The notes under the pieces were generated by a model. That model saw only the letters and a list, made by a program, of their open reading frames with translations, did no database searches and was not told where the DNA came from. A stretch of DNA of 36,265 nt from Candidatus Omnitrophota bacterium (GTDB lineage Bacteria > Omnitrophota > Gorgyraeia > Zapsychrales > JANLHA01). Below are positions 22,591 to 36,206 of the stretch, piece after piece. The stretch lies in assembly GCA_023143685.1 (NCBI GenBank), contig JAGLHE010000079.1, forward strand, positions 1-36,265. The letters run 5' to 3'. The translations under genes were made by a program, and so were the position numbers. The stretch's first letter is position 1, and each line of letters opens with the position of its first letter.

Positions 22591-23103
22591 TTATATATAA
22601 GTAGCAATAATTTTACGCCACAGGCCTTTTTTCTTTAAAATCAATTCAACAACCTCTCGCACAGCCCCTTGTCCTCCCTTTTTTCGAGTGACATAATCTG
22701 CATGACGTTTTAATTCAGGAGCCGCATTTTTAACAGCGACCGCGAAACCAACTCGCTTTAACACCGGCAAATCCGGCAGATCATCGCCGACAAAACAAAC
22801 TTCATCCTCTTTCACCTTAAGTTCCTTTAAAATTTTTTTATATGTACCCATCTTCGGGTAGGCGTCTTGATATATTTTTGTAATTTTTAAATCTTTCATA
22901 CGCGTTGTTACAGCAGGAGCTGAGCGGGCAGACAAAATCGCAGTTTTCAACCCCATCTTTTGAAAGAGCACAAGCCCATATCCGTCCTGCACATTAAAAA
23001 CTTTAATCTCTTTTCCGTCGCCGTCATAGATAATCTTGCCGTCCGTTAAAACACCATCTACGTCCATGACAAGTAATTTAATTTTTTTTATCTTATTAAT
23101 CAT
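22591..23103 (-). CDS. kdsC: 3-deoxy-D-manno-octulosonate 8-phosphate phosphatase (KdsC/YrbI)
   Basis: 170 aa; LLVMDVDGVLTDGKI, SARSAPAV, VCFVGDDLPDLPVLKRVGFAVAV. Confidence 0.94.
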   Translation of the reverse strand: MINKIKKIKLLVMDVDGVLTDGKIIYDGDGKEIKVFNVQDGYGLVLFQKMGLKTAILSARSAPAVTTRMKDLKITKIYQDAYPKMGTYKKILKELKVKEDEVCFVGDDLPDLPVLKRVGFAVAVKNAAPELKRHADYVTRKKGGQGAVREVVELILKKKGLWRKIIATYI

Positions 23104-23112
23104 TCGTTTATT

Positions 23113-23152
23113 TTTCGCGTAGTTTAGCGTAAAGTTTCGCGTGGTTTAGCGC
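23113..23152. repeat. Dispersed repeat family F, copy 1: four degenerate TTTMGCG units between kdsC and kdsD
   Basis: tttcgcgtagtttagcgtaaagtttcgcgtggtttagcgc; 35/40 identical to 29899-29938. Confidence 0.8.
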
Positions 23153-23156
23153 TATA

Positions 23157-24116
23157 TTAAAATAGCCCCGCTTTTAATAAATCCTGTATATCGAGTAAAC
23201 CGCAGGATTTTCCCTTATCATCCACAACCGGCAATTCATCAATCTTCTTTTCTTTCAATAACGCAAATGCTTCAACCGCTAATTTATCTTTAACAATCGC
23301 GGCTGGATTTTTTGTCATCACCGAATCCACTTTTCGCATCAACAAACCCTTGTCCTCTTCAATATGCCGGCGCAAATCACCGTCTGTAAAAATCCCGATC
23401 AACTTTCCCTTTGGATCAACGACACAAGCAGAACCACAACGCACCTTTGTCGTGGCCAACAAGACATCTTTGACTAACATTGTTTTTTTCACTCGCGGAT
23501 AATTATTACCTTTTCGCATAATATCGTCAACCTTAAGCAATAGCCTCCGCCCCAAAGATCCTCCTGGATGATAAAAAGCAAAATCTTCTTTTTTAAATCC
23601 ACGACGAACAATCAAACAAGCAGCCAACGCATCTCCCATGACAAGGGTTGCGGTCGTAGATGCCATAGGAGCCAACCCCAAAGGACAGCCTTCCTTTTCT
23701 ACGCCAACATCCAGAACGACATCGCTATACTTCGCTAAATTTGACTTCTTATTGCCTGTTATCGCTATTGTCCTGGACCCTATCTTTTTCAATAAAGGGA
23801 TCAACCTCGTCGTTTCTTCTGTCTCACCACTGCTTGAAATTACAATAAGCACATCATTGCGCGTCACTTGCCCCAAATCACCATGCACCGCCTCAGCACT
23901 GTGCATAAAAATACTCGGAGTTCCTGTTGATGATAATGTTGCCGCGATCTTACGCCCGATGATCCCTGTTTTCCCCATGCCTGTCACGATCAGGCGGCCA
24001 GAACATTTGGCAATAACATCAACTGCTTTGACAAAATTTTTATCCAGCTTTTTTGTCAAACCCTCAATTGCCTTGGCTTCGATATTTATAACCTCTCGTG
24101 CTTTTTTTAGACTCAT
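23157..24116 (-). CDS. kdsD: Arabinose-5-phosphate isomerase (SIS domain plus CBS pair)
   Basis: SIS domain VTGMGKTGIIGRKIAATLSSTGTPSIFMHSAEAVHGDLG, SSSGETEE, C-terminal CBS domains. Canonical start MSLKKAREVI at 24116. Confidence 0.94.
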   Translation of the reverse strand: MSLKKAREVINIEAKAIEGLTKKLDKNFVKAVDVIAKCSGRLIVTGMGKTGIIGRKIAATLSSTGTPSIFMHSAEAVHGDLGQVTRNDVLIVISSSGETEETTRLIPLLKKIGSRTIAITGNKKSNLAKYSDVVLDVGVEKEGCPLGLAPMASTTATLVMGDALAACLIVRRGFKKEDFAFYHPGGSLGRRLLLKVDDIMRKGNNYPRVKKTMLVKDVLLATTKVRCGSACVVDPKGKLIGIFTDGDLRRHIEEDKGLLMRKVDSVMTKNPAAIVKDKLAVEAFALLKEKKIDELPVVDDKGKSCGLLDIQDLLKAGLF

Positions 24117-24163
24117 ATTGTTGGTTCCTGTTAAACGCTGATGAGCACTGATAGCGCCCACGA

Positions 24164-24994
24164 CTATTTACACTTTTTTCTTTTTACGACTGTATCGATC
24201 GCGATTAAATCAACAAGCAAGTCTTCCAGTCGGCTTACCGCCAGCATATTCGGCCCGTCGGATAAGGCCTTTTTGGGATTCGTATGCACTTCCATAAAAA
24301 TTCCGTCACATCCAGCTGCCACCGCGCTCCTCGCCAATAACGGCACAAACTCTCTCTGCCCGCCAGAGACATCTCCCAGCCCGCCGGGTTGCTGCACACT
24401 ATGCGTAGCATCAAAAATCACAGGACACATCTTGCGCATAATCGCAAGAGAACGAAAATCACTAACCAGATTATTATACCCAAACGTTGTGCCCCGATCC
24501 GTCAGCACGACTTTGCTGTTCCCGCTACCTGTTACCTTGTTGACCGCTGCTTTCATGTCCCACGGCGCCATAAACTGCCCTTTCTTGATATTCACCACTT
24601 TACCGGTCCTGGCAACTTTCACGAGCAAATCTGTTTGTCGACACAAAAAAGCGGGGATCTGAATAATATCCGCGACCTGGGCCACTTTGTCTACATCATG
24701 TACGCAATGCACATCTGTTAAAACAGGCACATTAAATTCTTTTTTGACTTCTTTTAAAATCGCAAGGCCTTTATCAATCCCCGGCCCACGGTAAGAAGAC
24801 AACGACGTTCGGTTCGCCTTGTCATAACTTGCCTTAAAAACAAAAGGGATATTAAGCCGCCGCGTCATATCATCCAATTTCTCTGCAATCTTAAACACAG
24901 TTGCTTTATTCTCAATAACACACGGACCGGCGATTAAAATAAAAGGACGGCCCCCGCCCATTTTTTCTTTTCCGACGTTAATTGTTTTCGGCAT
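24164..24994 (-). CDS. kdsA: 3-deoxy-8-phosphooctulonate synthase (Cys-type, probably metal-dependent)
   Basis: 276 aa; LIAGPCVIEN, FKASYDKANRTSLSSYRGPG, DATHSVQQPGG. Confidence 0.95.
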   Translation of the reverse strand: MPKTINVGKEKMGGGRPFILIAGPCVIENKATVFKIAEKLDDMTRRLNIPFVFKASYDKANRTSLSSYRGPGIDKGLAILKEVKKEFNVPVLTDVHCVHDVDKVAQVADIIQIPAFLCRQTDLLVKVARTGKVVNIKKGQFMAPWDMKAAVNKVTGSGNSKVVLTDRGTTFGYNNLVSDFRSLAIMRKMCPVIFDATHSVQQPGGLGDVSGGQREFVPLLARSAVAAGCDGIFMEVHTNPKKALSDGPNMLAVSRLEDLLVDLIAIDTVVKRKKCK

Positions 24995-25730
24995 CTTTTT
25001 CCCTTTTCACAAGCTGTGCAACACGCTCTAAATCTTCCGGCGAATCAACACCAATCGTCTCATGTTCCGTAAGAACTGTTTTAATTTTATAGCCTGCTTC
25101 TAAAACACGCAGCTGCTCTAATTTTTCCGTCTGCTCTAAGATGGACTCCGGCAGATCTTTCCACACATCCAGGAACTCTTTTCGATACGCATAAAGGCCA
25201 AGATGTTTGTAGCATATCACTTCGGAAAAATCTTTCTTATCCCTGTTAAATGGAATTGGTGAACGTGAAAAATATAACGCATTTTTATTCTGGTCCACAA
25301 CGACCTTTACCACGTTAGGATTATCCAAATCTTCCCGGGATTCAAGAAGTTTAACAACCGTTGCCATCGAAGCATCTTTGTCATCCACAAGCCCTTGCGC
25401 TAATGCGTCAATCACCTGCGGATCGATTAAGGGTTCGTCCCCCTGGATGTTCACAACAATCTTAGCTGAAGCATGCCGCAAGGCCTTGGCAATCCGGTCT
25501 GTTCCTGACGCATGGCCAGTTGATGTCATTAAAACGTTCGCGCCGAACCCCTGCGCCGCGTCAAATACACGTTCATCATCACAAAGGATAAAAACATCAT
25601 CCAACAAGTTCGCCTTCTTCGCCTGTTCCCAGACATGCTGGATCATAGGCTTGCCGTTTAGATCAGCTAAAACTTTTCCTTCAAATCGTGTCGATGCCCA
25701 GCGGGCGGGAATTGCGGCGATGATATTCAT
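24978..25730 (-). CDS. kdsB: CMP-Kdo synthetase (3-deoxy-manno-octulosonate cytidylyltransferase)
   Basis: 250 aa; AAIPARWASTRFEGKVLADLNGKPMIQHVWEQA, VNIQGDEPLI, YFSRSPIPF, KHLGLYAYR. Overlaps kdsA by 17 bp. Confidence 0.96.
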   Translation of the reverse strand: MNIIAAIPARWASTRFEGKVLADLNGKPMIQHVWEQAKKANLLDDVFILCDDERVFDAAQGFGANVLMTSTGHASGTDRIAKALRHASAKIVVNIQGDEPLIDPQVIDALAQGLVDDKDASMATVVKLLESREDLDNPNVVKVVVDQNKNALYFSRSPIPFNRDKKDFSEVICYKHLGLYAYRKEFLDVWKDLPESILEQTEKLEQLRVLEAGYKIKTVLTEHETIGVDSPEDLERVAQLVKREKDAENN

Positions 25731-26833: not shown

Positions 26834-26862
26834 ATTCTAACACAGTTTAAATATGGCGTCAA
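26834..26862 (-). promoter_or_regulatory. Candidate sigma70-type promoter inside the 3' end of the GT9 gene, driving rfaE1-kds-lpt genes
   Basis: Gene-strand TTGACG (26862-26857), 17-nt spacer, TAGAAT (26839-26834). Confidence 0.5.
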
Positions 26863-27877
26863 CTGCTTCTAAAACCTCATCAACTGTAACATTTTCAAGC
26901 ATTTTCGCGTCAAAAAAACGACTTTTAGCAAAGGCCCTATCCTTATACGGCGGTGGAGCGACATACCGGGATTTGGGGCCAACAGGACGCCACCGCTCCG
27001 GATTGATCCCGGGCTGATTGCGGGTAAAAATGGATACAACGGGTACATCCAGGGCATCTGCAATATGAACAGGCCCGGAATCATTCGAAACAAGCAAACG
27101 ACACCGGCTAAGGATGCCTGCAAGCTGACCAACTGTTGTCTTGTTCGTTAAATCAAAAACCGGAAAAGCTGTATTAACTAATATTTGCTTAGTCGCTTCA
27201 TGCGCGTCATTGGCTCCCACCATAATAAAAGTTGCCAAATATTTCTGGTGCAGATTTTCCATCAACGCCACAAACCGTTCGACAGGCCACCTTTTCGCAG
27301 GACAACTCGCGCCTGGATGAATCGCAAAGACCGGAACCTTCTTTCCTAAATCATGATTTTCAAAAAATTGCCGCGCCCACACCTGTGCCCTACCCTGCAA
27401 CGGGAGCAAATATTCAAGATTATCATCATGAATCCCAATTCTTTCTAAAACATCCAAACAGTATCGCGCCTCATGCTTGATACCTGCGGCCCTGTTATCT
27501 TCAATAGGGTCTGTCAATAAAAAACCATAATTTTTATCAAAATACCCCACACGCATAGGGACCCCAGCCAAAAAACATAAAAGATTTGTCCTTCGCTTTG
27601 TATAAAAATTTATAGCGAGATCAAACTTTTTTGACCGCAGCTCGAACACCAACCGCCAAAACCCCAGCACCCCATTATGAACTTTTTTACGGTCATCCAG
27701 AATAATGACATCAATATCCGGATTTCCCGAAACTAAATCAAAAGTTGTTGGCGCAATCAACATCGTGATGCGCGCGTTGGGATAAGCCTGACGCAAAGCA
27801 CGCACTGCCGGCGTTGTTAAGACGACATCGCCTATCCTGTCCGTTCTAACGACAAGTATATTTTTAAAATTATTCAT
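26837..27877 (-). CDS. Glycosyltransferase family 9 (ADP-heptose:LPS heptosyltransferase-like)
   Basis: 346 aa; NILVVRTDRIGDVVLTTPAVRALRQAYP, HPGASCPAKRWPVERF, LVSNDSGPVHIADAL. Confidence 0.92.
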   Translation of the reverse strand: MNNFKNILVVRTDRIGDVVLTTPAVRALRQAYPNARITMLIAPTTFDLVSGNPDIDVIILDDRKKVHNGVLGFWRLVFELRSKKFDLAINFYTKRRTNLLCFLAGVPMRVGYFDKNYGFLLTDPIEDNRAAGIKHEARYCLDVLERIGIHDDNLEYLLPLQGRAQVWARQFFENHDLGKKVPVFAIHPGASCPAKRWPVERFVALMENLHQKYLATFIMVGANDAHEATKQILVNTAFPVFDLTNKTTVGQLAGILSRCRLLVSNDSGPVHIADALDVPVVSIFTRNQPGINPERWRPVGPKSRYVAPPPYKDRAFAKSRFFDAKMLENVTVDEVLEAVDAIFKLC

Positions 27878-28862
27878 GTAGGTTCTTTAATGTCACTTCA
27901 TTCCCTGCGATGCTGATTACGCTTAAAAGATCGTCAACTGTAATACCTCCCATACACGTATGCGGGACACCCTCCTCTTTGCCCTGACAAACCGGGCAAT
28001 CCTGATTCTTCCGCAAATAACAACTGTTATCACTCCACGGACGGGCTCCTGATGGTTCTGAATAACCAAACAACCCAACGACCGCTACATTCGCATAACT
28101 CGCTAAATGCATCGGTGAGCTATCATTCGCGATCGCTAAAACAGAATTCTGAAAAACATAAACCAACTGCACTAAGGTAATCTTTCCACACAAGTCAATC
28201 GCCGGATGCTTCATTTGTTTCATAATATCCGCGACAATATCCTTGTCATTTTTGTCTCCGACAAAAATAATATTTACACCATATTTCTCAATAAGCGCGT
28301 CGCTGGCCTGTGCGAACCTTTCAGGCAACCACCGTTTTTCCGGATTCGCCGCACTCGGGCCCATAACAACATTTTTTGCACCCGTCATTCTGCCAAGAAG
28401 TTTATCCACAGCATCCTTGTCCTCTTGTGCCGGGGCAATTGCATATTTTTTTGACGACTCATGGCCATAGGGATAAACAGACCGCAAACGGTCCAAATGT
28501 TGCTGACGGGAATGTTGACCCTTAACTCTTTTTAAAAATGGAGATGTTTTATATCTCGCGCCGATCATAAACGGCATCGCAGAATTGCGCAAATCCACAA
28601 TCAAGTCAAACTTCTCTTTACGCAAACCCCAAATCCATTTTAAAGTTTTTAATGGATGCTGATATTTATCATAAATATGCACCTTATCCAGATTGGGATT
28701 ATTTCGCATCAGGGACTCAGCCTTAGGCCCTACAACAACCGACACCTTGGCATCCGGAAAATCATTCTTTAAAATATCAACAGCAGGAGACGACATAATC
28801 ACATCCCCGATATTTGTATGCGATATAACAAGAATTTTTTTAATTTTAGATTTATTGATCAT
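27870..28862 (-). CDS. Glycosyltransferase family 9
   Basis: 330 aa; ILVISHTNIGDVIMSSPAVDILK, PSAANPEKRWLPERFA, IANDSSPMHLASY, Cys-rich tail CPVCQGKEEGVPHTCMGGITVDDL. Confidence 0.92.
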   Translation of the reverse strand: MINKSKIKKILVISHTNIGDVIMSSPAVDILKNDFPDAKVSVVVGPKAESLMRNNPNLDKVHIYDKYQHPLKTLKWIWGLRKEKFDLIVDLRNSAMPFMIGARYKTSPFLKRVKGQHSRQQHLDRLRSVYPYGHESSKKYAIAPAQEDKDAVDKLLGRMTGAKNVVMGPSAANPEKRWLPERFAQASDALIEKYGVNIIFVGDKNDKDIVADIMKQMKHPAIDLCGKITLVQLVYVFQNSVLAIANDSSPMHLASYANVAVVGLFGYSEPSGARPWSDNSCYLRKNQDCPVCQGKEEGVPHTCMGGITVDDLLSVISIAGNEVTLKNLHE

Positions 28863-28869
28863 AACAATA

Positions 28870-29880
28870 TTATCCCAAAAAATTCAGTGCAGCATCCATC
28901 ACATCATCAACGGTCACAGCCTTCATGCATTTATTGTCCGGGCAGTCTAATTTGTAACACGCGTCCCGGTTACACTCGGTATCCTTTTGGGCAATAACAC
29001 TACGCCCTTTCCCCCGGGGGCCTGTTACCTCTGCCCGTGTCGGCCCAAAAATTCCAATCACATCTGTCCCCACACAACTTGCAATATGCATTGGCCCAGA
29101 GTCCGAAGAGATAACCAGGTCGGCACGCCCCATAAGTGCTATTAACTCTTTCAAATTAGTCTTCCCGGCCAGGATGACAGGATTTACACGCGAAAGCCTG
29201 GCAATCTCTTTAGCACGCTCAACATCCTTAGGCGCACCGGGGATAACCACCTTGACTTGCAACTCCTGGTCTAACCTCTTGACCAGTTCTACAAAATTTT
29301 CTATTGGCCAGCGTTTTAAATCCCAATTTCCTCCGGTATTCACCATCACAACCTTATCGTGCGGAAAAATATTCGCTTTCGCAAGCAACCGATCAGCTGC
29401 CATCTTTGCCTCCGGCAAAACAGCTAACTCACACGAACGGTCTTTAACCTTGACCCCATACGATTCAATGACGTTTAAATAATGATCTGAACGGTGCGGC
29501 ATGCCTTCCGGCAATTCAACTTTATGCGTTAACAACTTTCCGCGCTTTTTAAAATCATATCCCACCCTTACCGGGACTCCTGCCAAATATATCAGCAACG
29601 ACCGTGTCCACGACTGATGCAACAGAAACGCGATATCAAAATATTTCTTACGCAACCGCCAAACAAGTTTAATCTTACCGATAAGGCCGCGATGGCCGCC
29701 TTGCTCATCATAAATGATTAACTCATCAATGTATGGACAACATTCCGCGATATCCTTAACACGTGGCACGGCAAGACAACACACCTTTGCATCAGGATAG
29801 GCCTCCTTTAAGGCTCGAAAAACCGGGACAGAAAAAATCACATCCCCTAACCAATTGACGTTAAAAACTAAGATATTCAT
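28870..29880 (-). CDS. Glycosyltransferase family 9 (heptosyltransferase II-like)
   Basis: 336 aa; NILVFNVNWLGDVIFSVPVFRAL, NTGGNWDLKRWPIENF, VISSDSGPMHIASCVGTDVIGIFGPT, Cys-rich tail. Confidence 0.93.
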   Translation of the reverse strand: MNILVFNVNWLGDVIFSVPVFRALKEAYPDAKVCCLAVPRVKDIAECCPYIDELIIYDEQGGHRGLIGKIKLVWRLRKKYFDIAFLLHQSWTRSLLIYLAGVPVRVGYDFKKRGKLLTHKVELPEGMPHRSDHYLNVIESYGVKVKDRSCELAVLPEAKMAADRLLAKANIFPHDKVVMVNTGGNWDLKRWPIENFVELVKRLDQELQVKVVIPGAPKDVERAKEIARLSRVNPVILAGKTNLKELIALMGRADLVISSDSGPMHIASCVGTDVIGIFGPTRAEVTGPRGKGRSVIAQKDTECNRDACYKLDCPDNKCMKAVTVDDVMDAALNFLG

Positions 29881-29938: not shown

Positions 29939-31019
29939 GGTTATAGACTTCTATTGTTTTATCCACCATTTCATCGGCTGAAAAATTCTTAATGACAAAT
30001 TCCCGGGCTCTTAAGCCCATCTTTGTTGCTTCAAAGTTATCCTGCGATACAGATATAATCGCCTTGGCAAGTTCGTCCGCGTCTCCCGGCTTAACAAGCC
30101 GTCCTGTCCGGCCGTCCTCAACCAAACTAGGGATCCCACCCACACGGGAAGCCACAACAGGCAACCCTGCCGCTTGCGCTTCCATAACAGACAACCCTAA
30201 CCCTTCCTGGAGTGAGGGCATAACAAACAAATCAAACAACGGTAAAAACTTTTCCGGCTCATTAACCGATTCGCTAAAAAACACATGGTTCTGCAAGTTA
30301 AGTTCGTTTACCTGCTGACGCAACGCGTCTTCCATCTTCCCCTGCCCTACGATCAACAATCTTGCATTCAAAATCTTTTGAACAATTTTATACATCGCCT
30401 TGATTAAAACCTCATGTCCTTTGACATCAGAAAGACGCGCGATGATTCCGATTAACGGCCCTTCCGGCAAACCCAGGCTCTCCCGTCCGTCCTTCTTTTC
30501 CTGCTCAGTCTTACAAACAAAATCACTAACATCCAATCCATTCATAACTAAAGAAACCTTGTCCGGCGACACACGAAAATCTTTTTTCAGATGTTCTTCA
30601 ACAGCAGGGCTTATCGCAATAACCCCCTTGCCCCAGAAAGGGAACAATCGCCTGGACAAACGCGCCTTAAAAAACCCATGACAGGTTGACACACAAGGCA
30701 CGCCTGTATCACGAGCCACAAAAAAACCCATCACCTGTGTTACCCGTGTTTGCGCGTGGATAACATCAATTGCCTTTTCATGAACAAACGACTCTACACG
30801 TCCTAAATTCCAATAAATCTTCAAACTCAATTCCGACTTTGTGCGGATATTCAATTTCAAATGCCGGGCCCCATTACCCTCAAACATTTCAACCATATTC
30901 CCGCCACTTGATACAATGTAAACCTTGTGCCCTTTTTTGATAAGCCCTTTTGACAAGGTCAACAAATAGCTTGTGATCCCGCCGGTGTTTAGATGAGTTG
31001 TAAGAAATAAAATATTCAT
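29922..31019 (-). CDS. Glycosyltransferase family 4
   Basis: 365 aa; LTTHLNTGGITSYLLTLSKGL, GIIARLSDVKGHEVLIKAM, FVMPSLQEGLGLSVMEAQAAGLPVVASRVGGIPSLV. Confidence 0.93.
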   Translation of the reverse strand: MNILFLTTHLNTGGITSYLLTLSKGLIKKGHKVYIVSSGGNMVEMFEGNGARHLKLNIRTKSELSLKIYWNLGRVESFVHEKAIDVIHAQTRVTQVMGFFVARDTGVPCVSTCHGFFKARLSRRLFPFWGKGVIAISPAVEEHLKKDFRVSPDKVSLVMNGLDVSDFVCKTEQEKKDGRESLGLPEGPLIGIIARLSDVKGHEVLIKAMYKIVQKILNARLLIVGQGKMEDALRQQVNELNLQNHVFFSESVNEPEKFLPLFDLFVMPSLQEGLGLSVMEAQAAGLPVVASRVGGIPSLVEDGRTGRLVKPGDADELAKAIISVSQDNFEATKMGLRAREFVIKNFSADEMVDKTIEVYNRAKQR

Positions 31020-33145
31020 ATAGATACTGTTTTATCCGTCTCTTGTTTCTCCTCAATAAACCGCAGAACCTGTTCAGCCACTTCTTCCGGAGAGATATCT
31101 TTCATACATGCATGCGTAAAAACACGACATTGTGAACTATAACACGGCGCGCAACTCAAATTTCTTTCAAACACAACATATTTTGATGCCGGAGGTAAAT
31201 GCCGCTGAGAATCTGTTGGGCCGAACAACACAACAAACGGTGTCTTAACAGCTGCGGCAATATGCATCGGCGCTGAATCCGGAGTAATAAAAACTTCACA
31301 TCGTTTAATCAATGCGGCCAGCTGCATCACATCCGTCTTACCCGCAAAACTCGCCGGCTTTGACTTTGTCAGCTTCTTTAATTGCCGAACCGCCTCACGA
31401 TCTTTATCCATACCTGTTATAACCACACGGATATTGTGTGTCGCTAAAATATCGCACATCTTTGCGGCGTGCTCAATCGGCCAATTTTTGGTTGCCCACT
31501 TTTCAGACGCGGCCAGGTTAATTCCGACAATATTCTTTGTTGTTCCAAGCCATTCAGAATCCAGTAATTCCTGGACATACTTTTTATCCGTCTGCGAAAG
31601 CCAAAGCTCTAACGCAACATCTTTTTTCATCTCAATTCCCAAAAGACTCAACACCTGAAATTGATGCGACACCGGAGGGATATTATGAACAGGGTTTTCA
31701 ACTGTTTCCGTCAACAAGCACCCAAGTTTCTTGTTCTTGTAGCCATAACTTTTTTTGGGAAAACTTAAAAATGCCAGCAAATGACTTTTCGTATTATTCT
31801 GAAAATCAATCACTTTATCAAAATGATACTTTGCCAGATTATACGAAATCCTCATCAACCCGCGCAACCCCTTGTCGCGGCCTCTTAAATCCGCGACAAT
31901 CAATCCATCAAGGCAGGCGCATTTCTGCAAAATCTTACGCGATTCTTTTCCAACAAGACAATAAATTTTAGCCTTCGGATATTTTTTTCGCAACGCCTTT
32001 AAAGAGGCTGTCACCAAAACCACATCCCCGACGGAACTTAACTTAATCACTAAAATATTAAACGAGGACAAGGCTTCCTGATAAACCTCAATCGTCCGAC
32101 TCGCCATATGTTCAAGCAAAAACTTTGATTGCAGCTTTTCCTTAGCCGCGACAGTCAGTTGCTGTACCAATTTGCGGTCATTAAAAAGCCGCGAAACCGC
32201 CTGCGCCATTTGATCCGTGTCTTTGGGTAAAACTAAAAGCCCTGTTTCTTCATGATCGATAATTTCAACTACACCCCCCACTTGTGTGGCCACAACAGGC
32301 ACCCCGGCTGCCTGTGCTTCTAAAATCACACGGCCAAACGATTCGGGCGTTACTGACGACATAACCAGAACATCCGTTTTAGACAATAACTGCGGGATGT
32401 CCTGACGGTTACCCAAAAACTCCACATGATCAGAAAGGCCCAGGTGCCGCACCAAAACTTGTAATTCCTGTTTGTACGTTTCTTTTTTCCTGGGAGCGTC
32501 GCCGATAATCCATATCTTCGCATAAGGCATACTTCGCACAACCTTGGCCATGGCTTTTAGAAAATACGTGTGCCCTTTAAGCGGTGTAATGCGGCCCACC
32601 ATAGAAATAACATAATCCGAAGACTGGCCTTTTGAGGATTTATGCGGAATCTTAAACTTTGATAAATCAACACTGCGCGGGATAGGCCGGATATGTTCCG
32701 ACGAGACTTTATACTTCTCAACCATATGCCGGCCGATGACATCACTCGGAACAATAACAAACTTACCCCACCCCATCACCCGGCTGAACAAACGATTTTC
32801 ATAATAACCATGACAGGTTGTAATAAATTCAGCCTGTGTATGCCGGCACGCAAAATAAGCGATCCACCCCGGGACCCGGGACCGGGCATGAACAATATCA
32901 ACTTTTTCTTCAAGAATAATCTTGCGCAAGGCCTTAACCGACTTAACTATCGTCCAAAGAGATTTTTTGTGTACCGGCAAAGAGTAATGTGTTGCGCCGG
33001 TTTTTTCCAGCGAACCGGCCAGTGCCCCTCCATTTGAAACGACAATCGCGCAATGTCCATGCTCAATAAGATATTTGGCAAAATCGACTGTGCCGGTTTC
33101 AACACCTCCGACGTTTAATTCAGGAAGAACCTGTAATACACGCAT
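31016..33145 (-). CDS. Two-domain glycosyltransferase: GT4 (N-terminal) fused to GT9 (C-terminal)
   Basis: 709 aa; GT4 motifs LNVGGVETGTVDFAKYL, MSSVTPESFGRVILEAQAAGVPVVAT; then FNILVIKLSSVGDVVLVTASLKALRKKYP, PDSAPMHIAAAVKTPFVVLFGPT (GT9). Junction near 32065. Confidence 0.93.
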   Translation of the reverse strand: MRVLQVLPELNVGGVETGTVDFAKYLIEHGHCAIVVSNGGALAGSLEKTGATHYSLPVHKKSLWTIVKSVKALRKIILEEKVDIVHARSRVPGWIAYFACRHTQAEFITTCHGYYENRLFSRVMGWGKFVIVPSDVIGRHMVEKYKVSSEHIRPIPRSVDLSKFKIPHKSSKGQSSDYVISMVGRITPLKGHTYFLKAMAKVVRSMPYAKIWIIGDAPRKKETYKQELQVLVRHLGLSDHVEFLGNRQDIPQLLSKTDVLVMSSVTPESFGRVILEAQAAGVPVVATQVGGVVEIIDHEETGLLVLPKDTDQMAQAVSRLFNDRKLVQQLTVAAKEKLQSKFLLEHMASRTIEVYQEALSSFNILVIKLSSVGDVVLVTASLKALRKKYPKAKIYCLVGKESRKILQKCACLDGLIVADLRGRDKGLRGLMRISYNLAKYHFDKVIDFQNNTKSHLLAFLSFPKKSYGYKNKKLGCLLTETVENPVHNIPPVSHQFQVLSLLGIEMKKDVALELWLSQTDKKYVQELLDSEWLGTTKNIVGINLAASEKWATKNWPIEHAAKMCDILATHNIRVVITGMDKDREAVRQLKKLTKSKPASFAGKTDVMQLAALIKRCEVFITPDSAPMHIAAAVKTPFVVLFGPTDSQRHLPPASKYVVFERNLSCAPCYSSQCRVFTHACMKDISPEEVAEQVLRFIEEKQETDKTVSI

Positions 33146-33167: not shown

Positions 33168-33207
33168 GCCATTCGTGCTTTTTGTTGCATGGCCATTTGT
33201 GCTTTTT
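33168..33207. repeat. Short tandem duplication (24-bp period) between the LpxL-ELM1 and GT4-GT9 genes
   Basis: gccattcgtgcttttt (33168-33183) and gccatttgtgcttttt (33192-33207), 15/16 identical. Confidence 0.7.
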
Positions 33208-35188
33208 AAATAATTTTATTGATTCCTTCTCGAATCGCGGCGTTGTCATCCAACTTGCGGGTCTGAATCTTGTTTTTTGCCAAGTCATACACAGATTGTT
33301 TGATCCGACGGGCATCGCAGGCAAGAATATAACCCTGCTGGTTTAACATATCGATGAAACGATGATGTTTGTGGTGTCCCGAGCTCACCACCATACGGTC
33401 CTGAACAGAAAAAACAACGACCTGCTTCCCTGAGCTGGCGGCCTCTGAAACCATTGAGATACTGTCCCCTGAAACCACAACCACATCCGCTAACCCCAGA
33501 ATACCACCCATCGCTTCGGGCACATTATTCCGATTAGCTAAAACAAAAAATTGGCACCGTGGATGTTTTTTTAATTCCCGTATCAGCATATTCTCAACTT
33601 TGACCGATGTCCGGCGTGACGTTGTTATCAAGATATCCGCCTTTAACTCTTGCGCGACTTCTTTAATTTGGGTCACCACCATTTTGGCCTTTTTCTCCGT
33701 TAACACATAATCCTTTGTGTCACCGCCAATCAACACCCCAATCTTAAACTGATCTCGCATTTTCAAATGAGAAAACCTCTTAAACAACTGCTGCGTCTGC
33801 TGCGCTAAATATTCCGGCGTCATTGTATTGACCGCACCACGCGTGATAACCAAAGGCACTTTAATCTTTTTGCCGATTGGATGATCATGTTGGGGCAAAA
33901 CAACAAGATCGAAACGGTTAAAATTCAATAATCCCGGCGTCAGGATTGAAACACTTCTAGCCTGCTGATCGCTTGATAAAAGATAATTCAAGCCCGCTGA
34001 TAAAGAACCGCAAGAGATAAAAAAATCTGCCTTAACCGTCATGATTTGCTCAAAAGATTCGTCCGTCAAAAACCATCGCATAAAACCCAGCCGTCCCCGG
34101 TAAAAATGTTCTTTTGCAATAACGCTAAAAAGCGACACAAACCGTTTCGCCCACACACTACGAAACTCCACGCTAACAACCTTTGTCTCGCAGCTTACGC
34201 CTTTTTTAGTCAACTCTTCCTCTAATACATTGGCAACAGATTTTGACTGGTGCAAATGGCCAGCCCTGCCATCATCAAGAATAACAGTTACGGATTCTTT
34301 TGAATATTTCCAGATTTTATAAAACCACATATATTCACTGGGATATTTCCGGATATAGTCTTCCATAATTTTCGAGACTTTTTGAAGATTGGTTTCGATA
34401 TCTTTCTCCATATCCCCGGTATTTTCTAAATCCATAGCTTCATGGAGTAACATACGATGCGATGCCCCTTTATTGCGAATAATAATCGCAAAACACAACG
34501 GCACGCCCATCTTAAGGCCCATCCGCATAGCCCCAACCGACATGCTTGCCTGCTTATTAAAAAACGGCACTAACACCCCCCCCTTGCCGCCCTGGTCAAC
34601 AACCATTCCAACAATCTCATTATTATTAAGACTCGTAATAAGTTGGCGGACACCGATCCCTCGCTCAATCACACCCGAACCGCCGCACTGACGGTACGAA
34701 TTCAACAGATCATCCAAACGTTTGTAGCGCGTTTGCGGTTTAACGATAACCTTATATGGCCGCTCCAACATCGAGCATGAAAGGCTGGCAAGTTCCCAAC
34801 TGCCAAAATGCATCGCAATCAGAAGGCATCCCTTTCCTTTTTCCAAGGCCTTTTGGACATGCTCTTTACCTTCGACCTGAACATACTCTTCAAATTTTTC
34901 CGGAGGGATCAACGGAAGGAGAAAGACTTCAATAAAATTCTGTCCATAATTTTGAAAAACCTGCTTAGCGATACTTTTAATCTCTAACGGCGTCTTTTCT
35001 TCACCAAAGGCAATCTTTAAATTCGAATAAACCAGCGACCGGTGTTTGACATTAAAATAAAAAGCCAACGTTCCGATCGCGCGCCCGATCTTAACAGACA
35101 CAGATACCGGAAGCAGACGAATTAAAATCCCAAACGTTTTAACGCTGTGATAGATGATTGATTCTGTTACAGAAGTTTTCTTTTTCAT
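33206..35188 (-). CDS. Fusion: LpxL/HtrB-type lipid A acyltransferase (N-terminal) with ELM1-like/DUF1022 domain (C-terminal)
   Basis: 660 aa; acyltransferase HFGSWE (HX4E), DQGGKGGVLVPFFN, YMWFYKIWKY; then VILDDGRAGHLHQSKSVANVL, GVLIGGDTKDY, VVVSGDSISMVSEAASSGKQVVVFS. Junction near 34295. Confidence 0.85.
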   Translation of the reverse strand: MKKKTSVTESIIYHSVKTFGILIRLLPVSVSVKIGRAIGTLAFYFNVKHRSLVYSNLKIAFGEEKTPLEIKSIAKQVFQNYGQNFIEVFLLPLIPPEKFEEYVQVEGKEHVQKALEKGKGCLLIAMHFGSWELASLSCSMLERPYKVIVKPQTRYKRLDDLLNSYRQCGGSGVIERGIGVRQLITSLNNNEIVGMVVDQGGKGGVLVPFFNKQASMSVGAMRMGLKMGVPLCFAIIIRNKGASHRMLLHEAMDLENTGDMEKDIETNLQKVSKIMEDYIRKYPSEYMWFYKIWKYSKESVTVILDDGRAGHLHQSKSVANVLEEELTKKGVSCETKVVSVEFRSVWAKRFVSLFSVIAKEHFYRGRLGFMRWFLTDESFEQIMTVKADFFISCGSLSAGLNYLLSSDQQARSVSILTPGLLNFNRFDLVVLPQHDHPIGKKIKVPLVITRGAVNTMTPEYLAQQTQQLFKRFSHLKMRDQFKIGVLIGGDTKDYVLTEKKAKMVVTQIKEVAQELKADILITTSRRTSVKVENMLIRELKKHPRCQFFVLANRNNVPEAMGGILGLADVVVVSGDSISMVSEAASSGKQVVVFSVQDRMVVSSGHHKHHRFIDMLNQQGYILACDARRIKQSVYDLAKNKIQTRKLDDNAAIREGINKII

Positions 35189-36206
35189 TGTCTTTAACCA
35201 TTCTTATTTGCATTTTAAGGACTAAAACCTTTGGGTAATCCTTCCAAAAATCTTTATAGTCTTTCAACTTAACCGCGTCCTTGGCCGTTGTGATAACAAA
35301 AGCCGATCCGCGGGAAGTAATTGATTCTGCGACCTGCCGCATATCCTCTTCGGTATACCAATGGTGGTTCCTGAAAATAAAATTCTTCTCGATGTGGGCA
35401 CCCAGCGATCTTACTGTCTCTTCAAAACTATCCGGATCACCTATCCCACAAAAAGAATGCACGGTCTGATTTTTAATAACAGACAGGTCTAATTTTTCTT
35501 TCGTATACAAATCCTGAAAACATACCGGCTGATGAATAGTTTCAATAACAGCGGCTGTCACTTTCTTTTTCTTAAGGATACGGTAAATCTCATCTAAATT
35601 CGCCTGCCCGATATCCGTCTTTGTAATCACAACCAGATTTGCTCTTTTTATCGAGTTGACCGGTTCTCTTAAAATTCCACGTGGGATCAGTCGATGATTT
35701 CCAAAAGGATTTGTCGCGTCAATCACGACAATATCCAAATCCCTTTTGACCCGCCACTGCTGAAATCCATCGTCGAGAAGAAAAATCCGGCCATCCTGAT
35801 GAGCCAGGGCTTCCTGCGCTTTCTGCACACGATCTTTTCCAACAACAACCGGGACATCGGGAAGGTTCTCCTGAAGCAGCATCACCTCATCATTTTTCGA
35901 ATCTTGCCTTTCTGAGGCTTTGTACCCGCGCGCTAAAATAATCGGCTGGACATCTGTCTCTTTAAGATATCGGGCGATCCATTCTACGAGCGGAGTTTTT
36001 CCAACCCCACCCCAAGTGATGTTCCCAACACTAATAACCGGCCTGCCAAGGGAATGGCAGGGAAAAATCCGCAAAGAATACAAGGCCTTGACCACAGCCA
36101 CACCCAAGCCATAAACAAACGAAAATCCAAGCAATAACACCTTAATAAAGGCTGCCCCTAAATCACGCCGCTGGTCAGTGATAACCGAATATAAATAGTC
36201 ATGCAT
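35139..36206 (-). CDS. lpxK: Tetraacyldisaccharide 4'-kinase
   Basis: 355 aa; GRPVISVGNITWGGVGKTPLVEWIARYL, LARGYK, LLDDGFQQWRVKRDLDIVVID. Overlaps the downstream gene by 50 bp. Confidence 0.94.
   Translation of the reverse strand: MHDYLYSVITDQRRDLGAAFIKVLLLGFSFVYGLGVAVVKALYSLRIFPCHSLGRPVISVGNITWGGVGKTPLVEWIARYLKETDVQPIILARGYKASERQDSKNDEVMLLQENLPDVPVVVGKDRVQKAQEALAHQDGRIFLLDDGFQQWRVKRDLDIVVIDATNPFGNHRLIPRGILREPVNSIKRANLVVITKTDIGQANLDEIYRILKKKKVTAAVIETIHQPVCFQDLYTKEKLDLSVIKNQTVHSFCGIGDPDSFEETVRSLGAHIEKNFIFRNHHWYTEEDMRQVAESITSRGSAFVITTAKDAVKLKDYKDFWKDYPKVLVLKMQIRMVKDNEKENFCNRINHLSQR

What the first reader, a model, noticed from the sequence alone, without database searches (positions are those of the whole stretch)
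33206..35188. Lipid A acyltransferase fused to an ELM1-like (DUF1022) domain
Seen: the first ~300 aa carry LpxL/HtrB features (HFGSWE; DQGGKGGVLVPFFN), and the rest carries VILDDGRAGHLHQS and GDSISMVSEAASSGK, which match the ELM1/DUF1022 family. Established: the family is named for plant mitochondrial fission protein ELM1, and to my knowledge its bacterial role is undefined. Inference: fusion in an LPS operon next to lpxK ties the bacterial domain to lipid A or inner-core synthesis, possibly as a glycosyltransferase-like enzyme, since the fold is thought to be GT-B-like.
Basis: partly seen in the sequence, partly recalled or inferred. Interest (0 to 1): 0.75.

Follow-up and report, generated by a model that had tools for sequence, protein, structure and literature searches.

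The report
Lipid A acyltransferase fused to Kdo-transferase-like domain
In the bacterial phylum Omnitrophota, one protein joins an enzyme that adds a fatty acid to lipopolysaccharide with a second domain, misnamed after a plant mitochondrial fission factor, whose closest tested relative adds a core sugar (Kdo) to the same molecule.

Summary
Window 33206-35188 (-) is one uninterrupted 660-aa frame: Pfam Lip_A_acyltrans (3-294, E 5e-51) followed by PF06258 Mito_fiss_Elm1 (309-652, E 1e-52). It is not an assembly join: all 80 retained hits of an independent genome scan carry both halves in order, and PF06258 occurs in 357/384 Omnitrophota genomes, mostly in about 650-aa frames. It sits in a conserved waaA-lpxK-[fusion]-GT4/GT9-heptosyltransferase operon. 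All eight KdoT active-site positions checked (D8, H13, H109, D110, SRRT 178-181) map to identical residues here. D306, H311, H434 and SRRT are invariant in 76 fused sequences. Best explanation: a bifunctional inner-membrane enzyme whose two halves act on the product of the neighbouring waaA, Kdo-lipid IVA, one adding a secondary acyl chain, the other an inner-core sugar, most likely Kdo. Sugar, linkage and order are inferred, not shown. New architecture of known parts.

The parts
34301..35188 (-). N-terminal domain (aa 1-296): LpxL/HtrB-type late acyltransferase; H127-X4-E132 catalytic motif, R166, D198
   Evidence: Pfam PF03279 E 5e-51; E132 aligns with E127 of A. baumannii LpxM, the residue changed in 5KNK; H127, E132, R166, D198 invariant in 76 fused sequences; full-length AF2 model matches LpxM 5KNK, E 8e-15
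33206..34300 (-). C-terminal domain (aa 297-660): KdoT/ELM1-family (PF06258) GT-B glycosyltransferase domain; D306, H311, H434-D435, S524-R525-R526-T527
   Evidence: Pfam PF06258 E 1.3e-52; AF2 pLDDT 93.4, pTM 0.90; Foldseek MurG 1.5e-7, MGD1, WecB; hhalign to A. baumannii KdoT prob 99.6, E 6.6e-25; KdoT residues map one to one
35139..36206 (-). lpxK (lipid A 4'-kinase), immediately upstream, overlaps the fusion gene by 50 nt
   Evidence: TIGR00682 192 bits, cut-off 92; upstream of the fusion in 78 of 80 loci
31016..33145 (-). GT4-GT9 fused glycosyltransferase, downstream neighbour
   Evidence: Pfam, TIGR02195 heptosyltransferase II over cut-off for the C half; single ORF with both halves in 60 of 75 loci
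22591..25730 (-). CMP-Kdo supply genes (kdsC-like, kdsD-like, kdsA, kdsB), same strand, same cluster
   Evidence: kdsA and kdsB: Pfam DAHP_synth_1 and CTP_transf_3, kdsB over the TIGR00466 cut-off; kdsC and kdsD named from their sequences, not searched
26837..29880 (-). three GT9 heptosyltransferase-family genes
   Evidence: Pfam PF01075; conserved order across loci

Best explanation
The gene encodes a bifunctional enzyme of the cytoplasmic face of the inner membrane. The N-terminal half is an active LpxL-type late acyltransferase using the H127-X4-E132 motif. The C-terminal half is an active KdoT-family (ELM1/PF06258) inverting GT-B glycosyltransferase that most likely moves Kdo from CMP-Kdo onto the Kdo-lipid IVA made by the neighbouring WaaA, with R526 of the SRRT motif positioning the donor carboxylate as proposed for R180 of KdoT. 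Both halves would work on the same lipid, so the fusion ties secondary acylation to completion of the inner core. Shown here: single frame, conservation, operon, fold, residue correspondence, presence only where WaaA is present in the genomes tested. Shown elsewhere for the relative KdoT: the reaction. Inferred: that this copy uses CMP-Kdo, which hydroxyl it modifies, the order of the two steps, and any benefit of the fusion.
For: Both domains well above Pfam cut-offs in one frame. PF06258 in 357/384 phylum genomes and in 237/249 of good quality, mostly in about 650-aa frames; 80/80 independent loci have N half then C half. Operon waaA-lpxK-fusion-GT4GT9-heptosyltransferases-kdsB: lpxK in 78/80, waaA in 65/80, most of the rest starting at a contig end. 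KdoT, a PF06258 protein, transfers Kdo to Kdo2-lipid IVA in vitro and prefers it to hexa-acylated Kdo2-lipid A (PMC12856342). The KdoT gene was found in a public record at the ilvE-adjacent locus, and its residues match the paper's numbering. D8, H13, H109, D110, S178, R179, R180, T181 correspond to D306, H311, H434, D435, S524, R525, R526, T527. D306, H311, H434, S524-R525-R526-T527 and E582 are invariant in 76 fused sequences. hhalign prob 99.6, E 6.6e-25; BLASTP E 8e-15, 28%. GT-B fold with pLDDT 93.4. All 70 fusion-bearing genomes checked have WaaA. G129 (2 contigs, 96% complete) keeps LpxC and two stand-alone LpxL genes but lacks the fusion, WaaA and any KdsB over cut-off.
Against: The SRRT and HD positions are also kept in the ELM1-like proteins L002 and L003, so they mark the family and not Kdo as donor. 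The fused domains score closer to those proteins (114-131 bits) than to KdoT (91 bits). KdoT attaches Kdo at O-5 of KdoI, whereas this operon carries several heptosyltransferase-family genes and an rfaE1-like kinase, so O-5 may be taken by heptose and the acceptor position may differ. A. baumannii has several PF06258 paralogues for other outer-core steps (GtrOC14, 19, 22; PMC10327509), so family members may use other sugars. Some genomes without the fusion and without WaaA keep a KdsB over cut-off (G031, G158, G160).
Confidence: 0.6

Rival explanations
1. Same bifunctional architecture, but the GT-B domain transfers another inner-core sugar (a heptose, hexosamine or uronic acid) and not Kdo.
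For: A. baumannii OC loci contain several PF06258 proteins predicted for different linkages (PMC4172580, PMC10327509). The operon is rich in heptosyltransferase-family genes. The conserved residues do not read out the donor.
Against: The only family members with tested activity (KdoT by assay; homologues including R. rickettsii by complementation) act at the Kdo step (PMC12856342). CMP-Kdo supply genes lie in the same cluster. The fusion was found only with WaaA.
Confidence: 0.25
2. The C-terminal domain is a non-catalytic GT-B module (scaffold or acceptor-binding domain) that helps the acyltransferase.
For: Plant ELM1 has a non-enzymatic role, recruiting a dynamin (cited in PMC10936431); GT-B folds without activity exist (general knowledge).
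Against: Active-site positions are invariant across 76 sequences that are as low as 34% identical in this domain. KdoT with the same residues is catalytic, and its R180Q loses function (PMC12856342).
Confidence: 0.1
3. The fusion is an assembly or frameshift artefact.
For: The gene lies near a contig end and the genome is fragmented (328 contigs).
Against: Single frame without stops; the same architecture in 80 loci from other assemblies and in genomes of one or two contigs (G124, G126).
Confidence: 0.01

Closest known systems
KdoT (A1S_2903 / GtrOC1) of Acinetobacter baumannii, PF06258, CMP-Kdo transferase (PMC12856342)
   Same: Same Pfam family; 28% identity, hhalign prob 99.6 over 241 columns; all eight compared active-site residues identical; WaaA made separately; acceptor class Kdo2-lipid IVA
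   Different: KdoT is a stand-alone protein of 296 aa in an outer-core locus beside ilvE; here the domain is fused behind an LpxL acyltransferase in a waaA-lpxK operon and is larger (about 360 aa)
LpxL/LpxM late acyltransferases (PF03279; LpxM structures 5KN7 and 5KNK)
   Same: HX4E motif including the catalytic Glu, same fold (Foldseek E 8e-15)
   Different: Known LpxL/LpxM proteins are single-domain; scores are far below the NCBIfam equivalog cut-offs for LpxL or LpxM (e.g. TIGR02207 109 of 298 bits), so acyl chain and position are unknown
WaaA/KdtA (GT30) Kdo transferase
   Same: GT-B transferase of the same pathway; KdoT is reported to superpose on WaaA in its active site (PMC12856342)
   Different: Not a homologue at sequence level here; a separate waaA gene is present
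Plant ELM1 (mitochondrial fission factor)
   Same: Name-giving member of PF06258
   Different: No evidence for a fission role here; L002/L003, ELM1-like proteins of two relatives, lack the D8/H13 counterparts that the fused domain keeps

Membership tests
Mito_fiss_Elm1 / KdoT family (PF06258) | Pfam profile match above gathering score | tested here: met
   179 bits against 27
Mito_fiss_Elm1 / KdoT family (PF06258) | SRRT motif with the donor-positioning Arg (R180 of KdoT) | tested here: met
   S524-R525-R526-T527, invariant in 76 fused sequences
Mito_fiss_Elm1 / KdoT family (PF06258) | GT-B fold of two Rossmann-like domains | tested here: met
   AF2 pLDDT 93.4; Foldseek to MurG, MGD1 and WecB with E 1e-7 to 1e-6, prob 1.00, TM about 0.5-0.58
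[quoted passage not shown]
   Needs biochemistry; residue correspondence only
KdoT (functional: third-Kdo transferase) | Co-occurs with WaaA | tested here: met
   All 70 fusion-bearing genomes tested have PF04413
LpxL/LpxM late acyltransferase (PF03279) | HX4(D/E) catalytic motif and LpxM-like fold | tested here: met
   H127-X4-E132 aligned with catalytic E127 of LpxM; Foldseek 5KNK E 8e-15
LpxL or LpxM sensu stricto (NCBIfam TIGR02207 / TIGR02208) | Score above equivalog/subfamily cut-off | tested here: not met
   109 of 298 bits and 71 of 336 bits; filed only as late acyltransferase superfamily
WaaA / GT30 | PF04413 N-domain match in the fusion protein | tested here: not met
   No PF04413 match in the protein; separate waaA on contig C112

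The most novel reading that the evidence does not exclude
The fusion is a phylum-wide gatekeeping enzyme: WaaA of Omnitrophota adds one Kdo, the ELM1 domain adds the second (or third) and passes the product within the same polypeptide to the LpxL half, so acylation is obligatorily coupled to Kdo addition. That would be a split Kdo pathway hard-wired to lipid A maturation.
Probability: 0.2. Interest if true: 0.7.

Novelty: new variant of a known kind. Interest (0 to 1): 0.55.

Why it matters
Proteins of PF06258 are still widely labelled 'mitochondrial fission'. A conserved fusion to a lipid A acyltransferase, beside waaA and lpxK across a phylum, is independent genomic evidence that the bacterial family belongs to inner-core LPS synthesis, and it extends the newly described WaaA-plus-KdoT split pathway from Pseudomonadota to Omnitrophota, a phylum represented here almost only by metagenome assemblies. 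It makes a defined two-activity assay possible on one polypeptide and suggests renaming many genes. I found no paper that reports this fusion, but the library holds open-access papers only.

Tried and rejected
Replacement of WaaA by the ELM1 domain: rejected, waaA is present and adjacent. Frameshift or join: rejected. Short or unfused frames from the census that were checked: G121 is cut by a contig end (L121); G135 contains both halves with a shortened N-terminus (L124); G270 and G073 carry stand-alone copies of the C-domain type (L122, L125, L126). Sequence search of the C domain against PDB: no hit at E up to 1, so the fold assignment rests on the model. Contig join of waaA to the window by overlapping ends: no shared end sequence between C306 and C112, so adjacency of waaA in this genome is inferred from relatives. 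Kdo co-loss test: clean only in G129, where KdsB is also missing; G021 has a below-cut-off KdsB, while G031, G158 and G160 keep a KdsB over cut-off, so it is weak support. The first alignment with KdoT was polluted by spurious ORFs and was redone. Whether the fusion exists outside Omnitrophota could not be tested: the single genome scan kept only its 80 best hits, all Omnitrophota or apparently mislabelled as Planctomycetales or Elusimicrobia.

Full report
What is there. The reported ORF exists exactly as described: 33206..35188 on the minus strand, 660 aa, no internal stop. Pfam gives Lip_A_acyltrans for residues 3-294 and Mito_fiss_Elm1 for 309-652, each about 150 bits over its cut-off. The gene starts inside the end of lpxK (50-nt overlap). 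Downstream follow a GT4-GT9 fused protein, a GT4, three GT9 heptosyltransferase-family genes, an rfaE1-like kinase, kdsB, kdsA, a kdsD-like gene and a kdsC-like gene.

Whose genome. The window is one contig (C306) of a 2.55-Mb, 328-contig genome. All named relatives with the full-length protein are Omnitrophota MAGs; a few carry other labels (Planctomycetales, Elusimicrobia) that look like mislabels, since they share the architecture and the operon. The genome's waaA lies near the end of another contig (C112). In relatives waaA directly precedes lpxK, so the operon is probably broken here by the assembly; the two contig ends share no sequence, so this is inference.

How general. PF06258 was found in 49 of 54 same-order genomes and 357 of 384 phylum genomes (237 of 249 good-quality ones), nearly always in open frames of about 615-720 aa. 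All 80 loci retained from an independent genome scan carry N half then C half; 78 have lpxK upstream and 65 have waaA before it, most of the others starting at a contig end. Identity to the window protein is 35-58%. The fusion therefore looks ancestral to the phylum, or nearly so. A few stand-alone copies of the same domain type exist in addition.

What the halves are. The N half aligns with A. baumannii LpxM; E132 of HFGSWE falls on E127, the residue changed to Ala in 5KNK, and the full-length model matches LpxM and PatA by Foldseek. It scores far below the equivalog cut-offs for LpxL or LpxM, so chain length and position are open. The genome has two further Lip_A_acyltrans genes. The C half gives a confident AlphaFold2 model (pLDDT 93.4) that matches GT-B enzymes: MurG, MGD1, and the GT-B-type epimerase WecB/MnaA. 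No sequence relative has a solved structure.

The link to KdoT. The literature search found that the A. [quoted passage not shown] I located the gene in a public A. baumannii record at the ilvE-adjacent position, and its residues agree with the paper's numbering. In a clean alignment all eight residues examined in the paper correspond to identical residues of the window protein. D306, H311, H434 and SRRT are invariant over 76 fused sequences. H13 of KdoT, which the paper reports as not conserved outside Acinetobacter, is conserved here. Profile comparison gives prob 99.6, E 6.6e-25. Two caveats: SRRT and HD are also present in the more ELM1-like stand-alone proteins L002/L003, and the fused profile scores these slightly higher than KdoT, so the residues show a working family member and not the donor sugar.

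Link to Kdo. In 70 fusion-bearing genomes tested there is always a WaaA. Of 20 listed genomes without PF06258, 10 also lack WaaA; in several of the other 10 waaA lies near a contig end, so the fusion may simply be unassembled. G129, two contigs and 96% complete, is the cleanest case: LpxC and two stand-alone LpxL genes remain, while the fusion, WaaA and any KdsB over cut-off are absent. Because fusion and waaA share an operon, joint loss is expected from linkage alone; this is supportive, not decisive.

Mechanism. WaaA makes Kdo(1 or 2)-lipid IVA at the cytoplasmic face of the inner membrane. The next two kinds of enzyme that use this lipid are late acyltransferases and inner-core glycosyltransferases. 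One of each is joined here. I infer that the fusion keeps the two activities on the same substrate pool. The tetra-acyl preference of KdoT means its reaction precedes or competes with acylation in A. baumannii, so a fixed pairing could set the order. Fusion is a recurring theme in this operon: WaaA-LpxK fusions in two lineages and GT4-GT9 fusions in 60 of 75 loci.

Verdict. Observation confirmed, interpretation supported and sharpened. Parts are known, the architecture is a new variant, and the specific claim (Kdo as the sugar) has moderate confidence.

Noticed in passing
window 31016-33145 (-): A second fused glycosyltransferase (GT4 + GT9 heptosyltransferase) directly downstream; both halves lie in a single ORF in 60 of 75 loci tested.
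   Followed up: partly
L133:460-2895(-) and L134:121-2547(-): WaaA-LpxK fusion proteins (811 and 808 aa) in two Omnitrophota lineages, just upstream of the LpxL-ELM1 position.
   Followed up: partly
L135:1318-6552(+) (G000 contig C71): A 1744-aa ORF in the window's own genome with an LpxC domain (804-1080) flanked by two methyltransferase domains, in addition to a normal LpxC gene.
   Followed up: partly
G040:C21:6786-7334 (+): A weak WaaA N-domain match inside a 5755-aa open frame.
   Followed up: no
L122, L125, L126: Stand-alone copies of the fusion-type ELM1 domain in two Omnitrophota genomes, so the domain is also used unfused.
   Followed up: partly
PDB 8GYM chain T1 / 8B6F chain A0: A subunit of Tetrahymena respiratory complexes is the best Foldseek match to the ELM1 domain model (E 9e-8, TM 0.39); possibly a GT-B-like accessory subunit.
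   Followed up: no
genome G129: Near-complete Omnitrophota genome with LpxC and two LpxL-like genes but no WaaA, no fusion and no KdsB over cut-off: a candidate for Kdo-less lipid A.
   Followed up: partly
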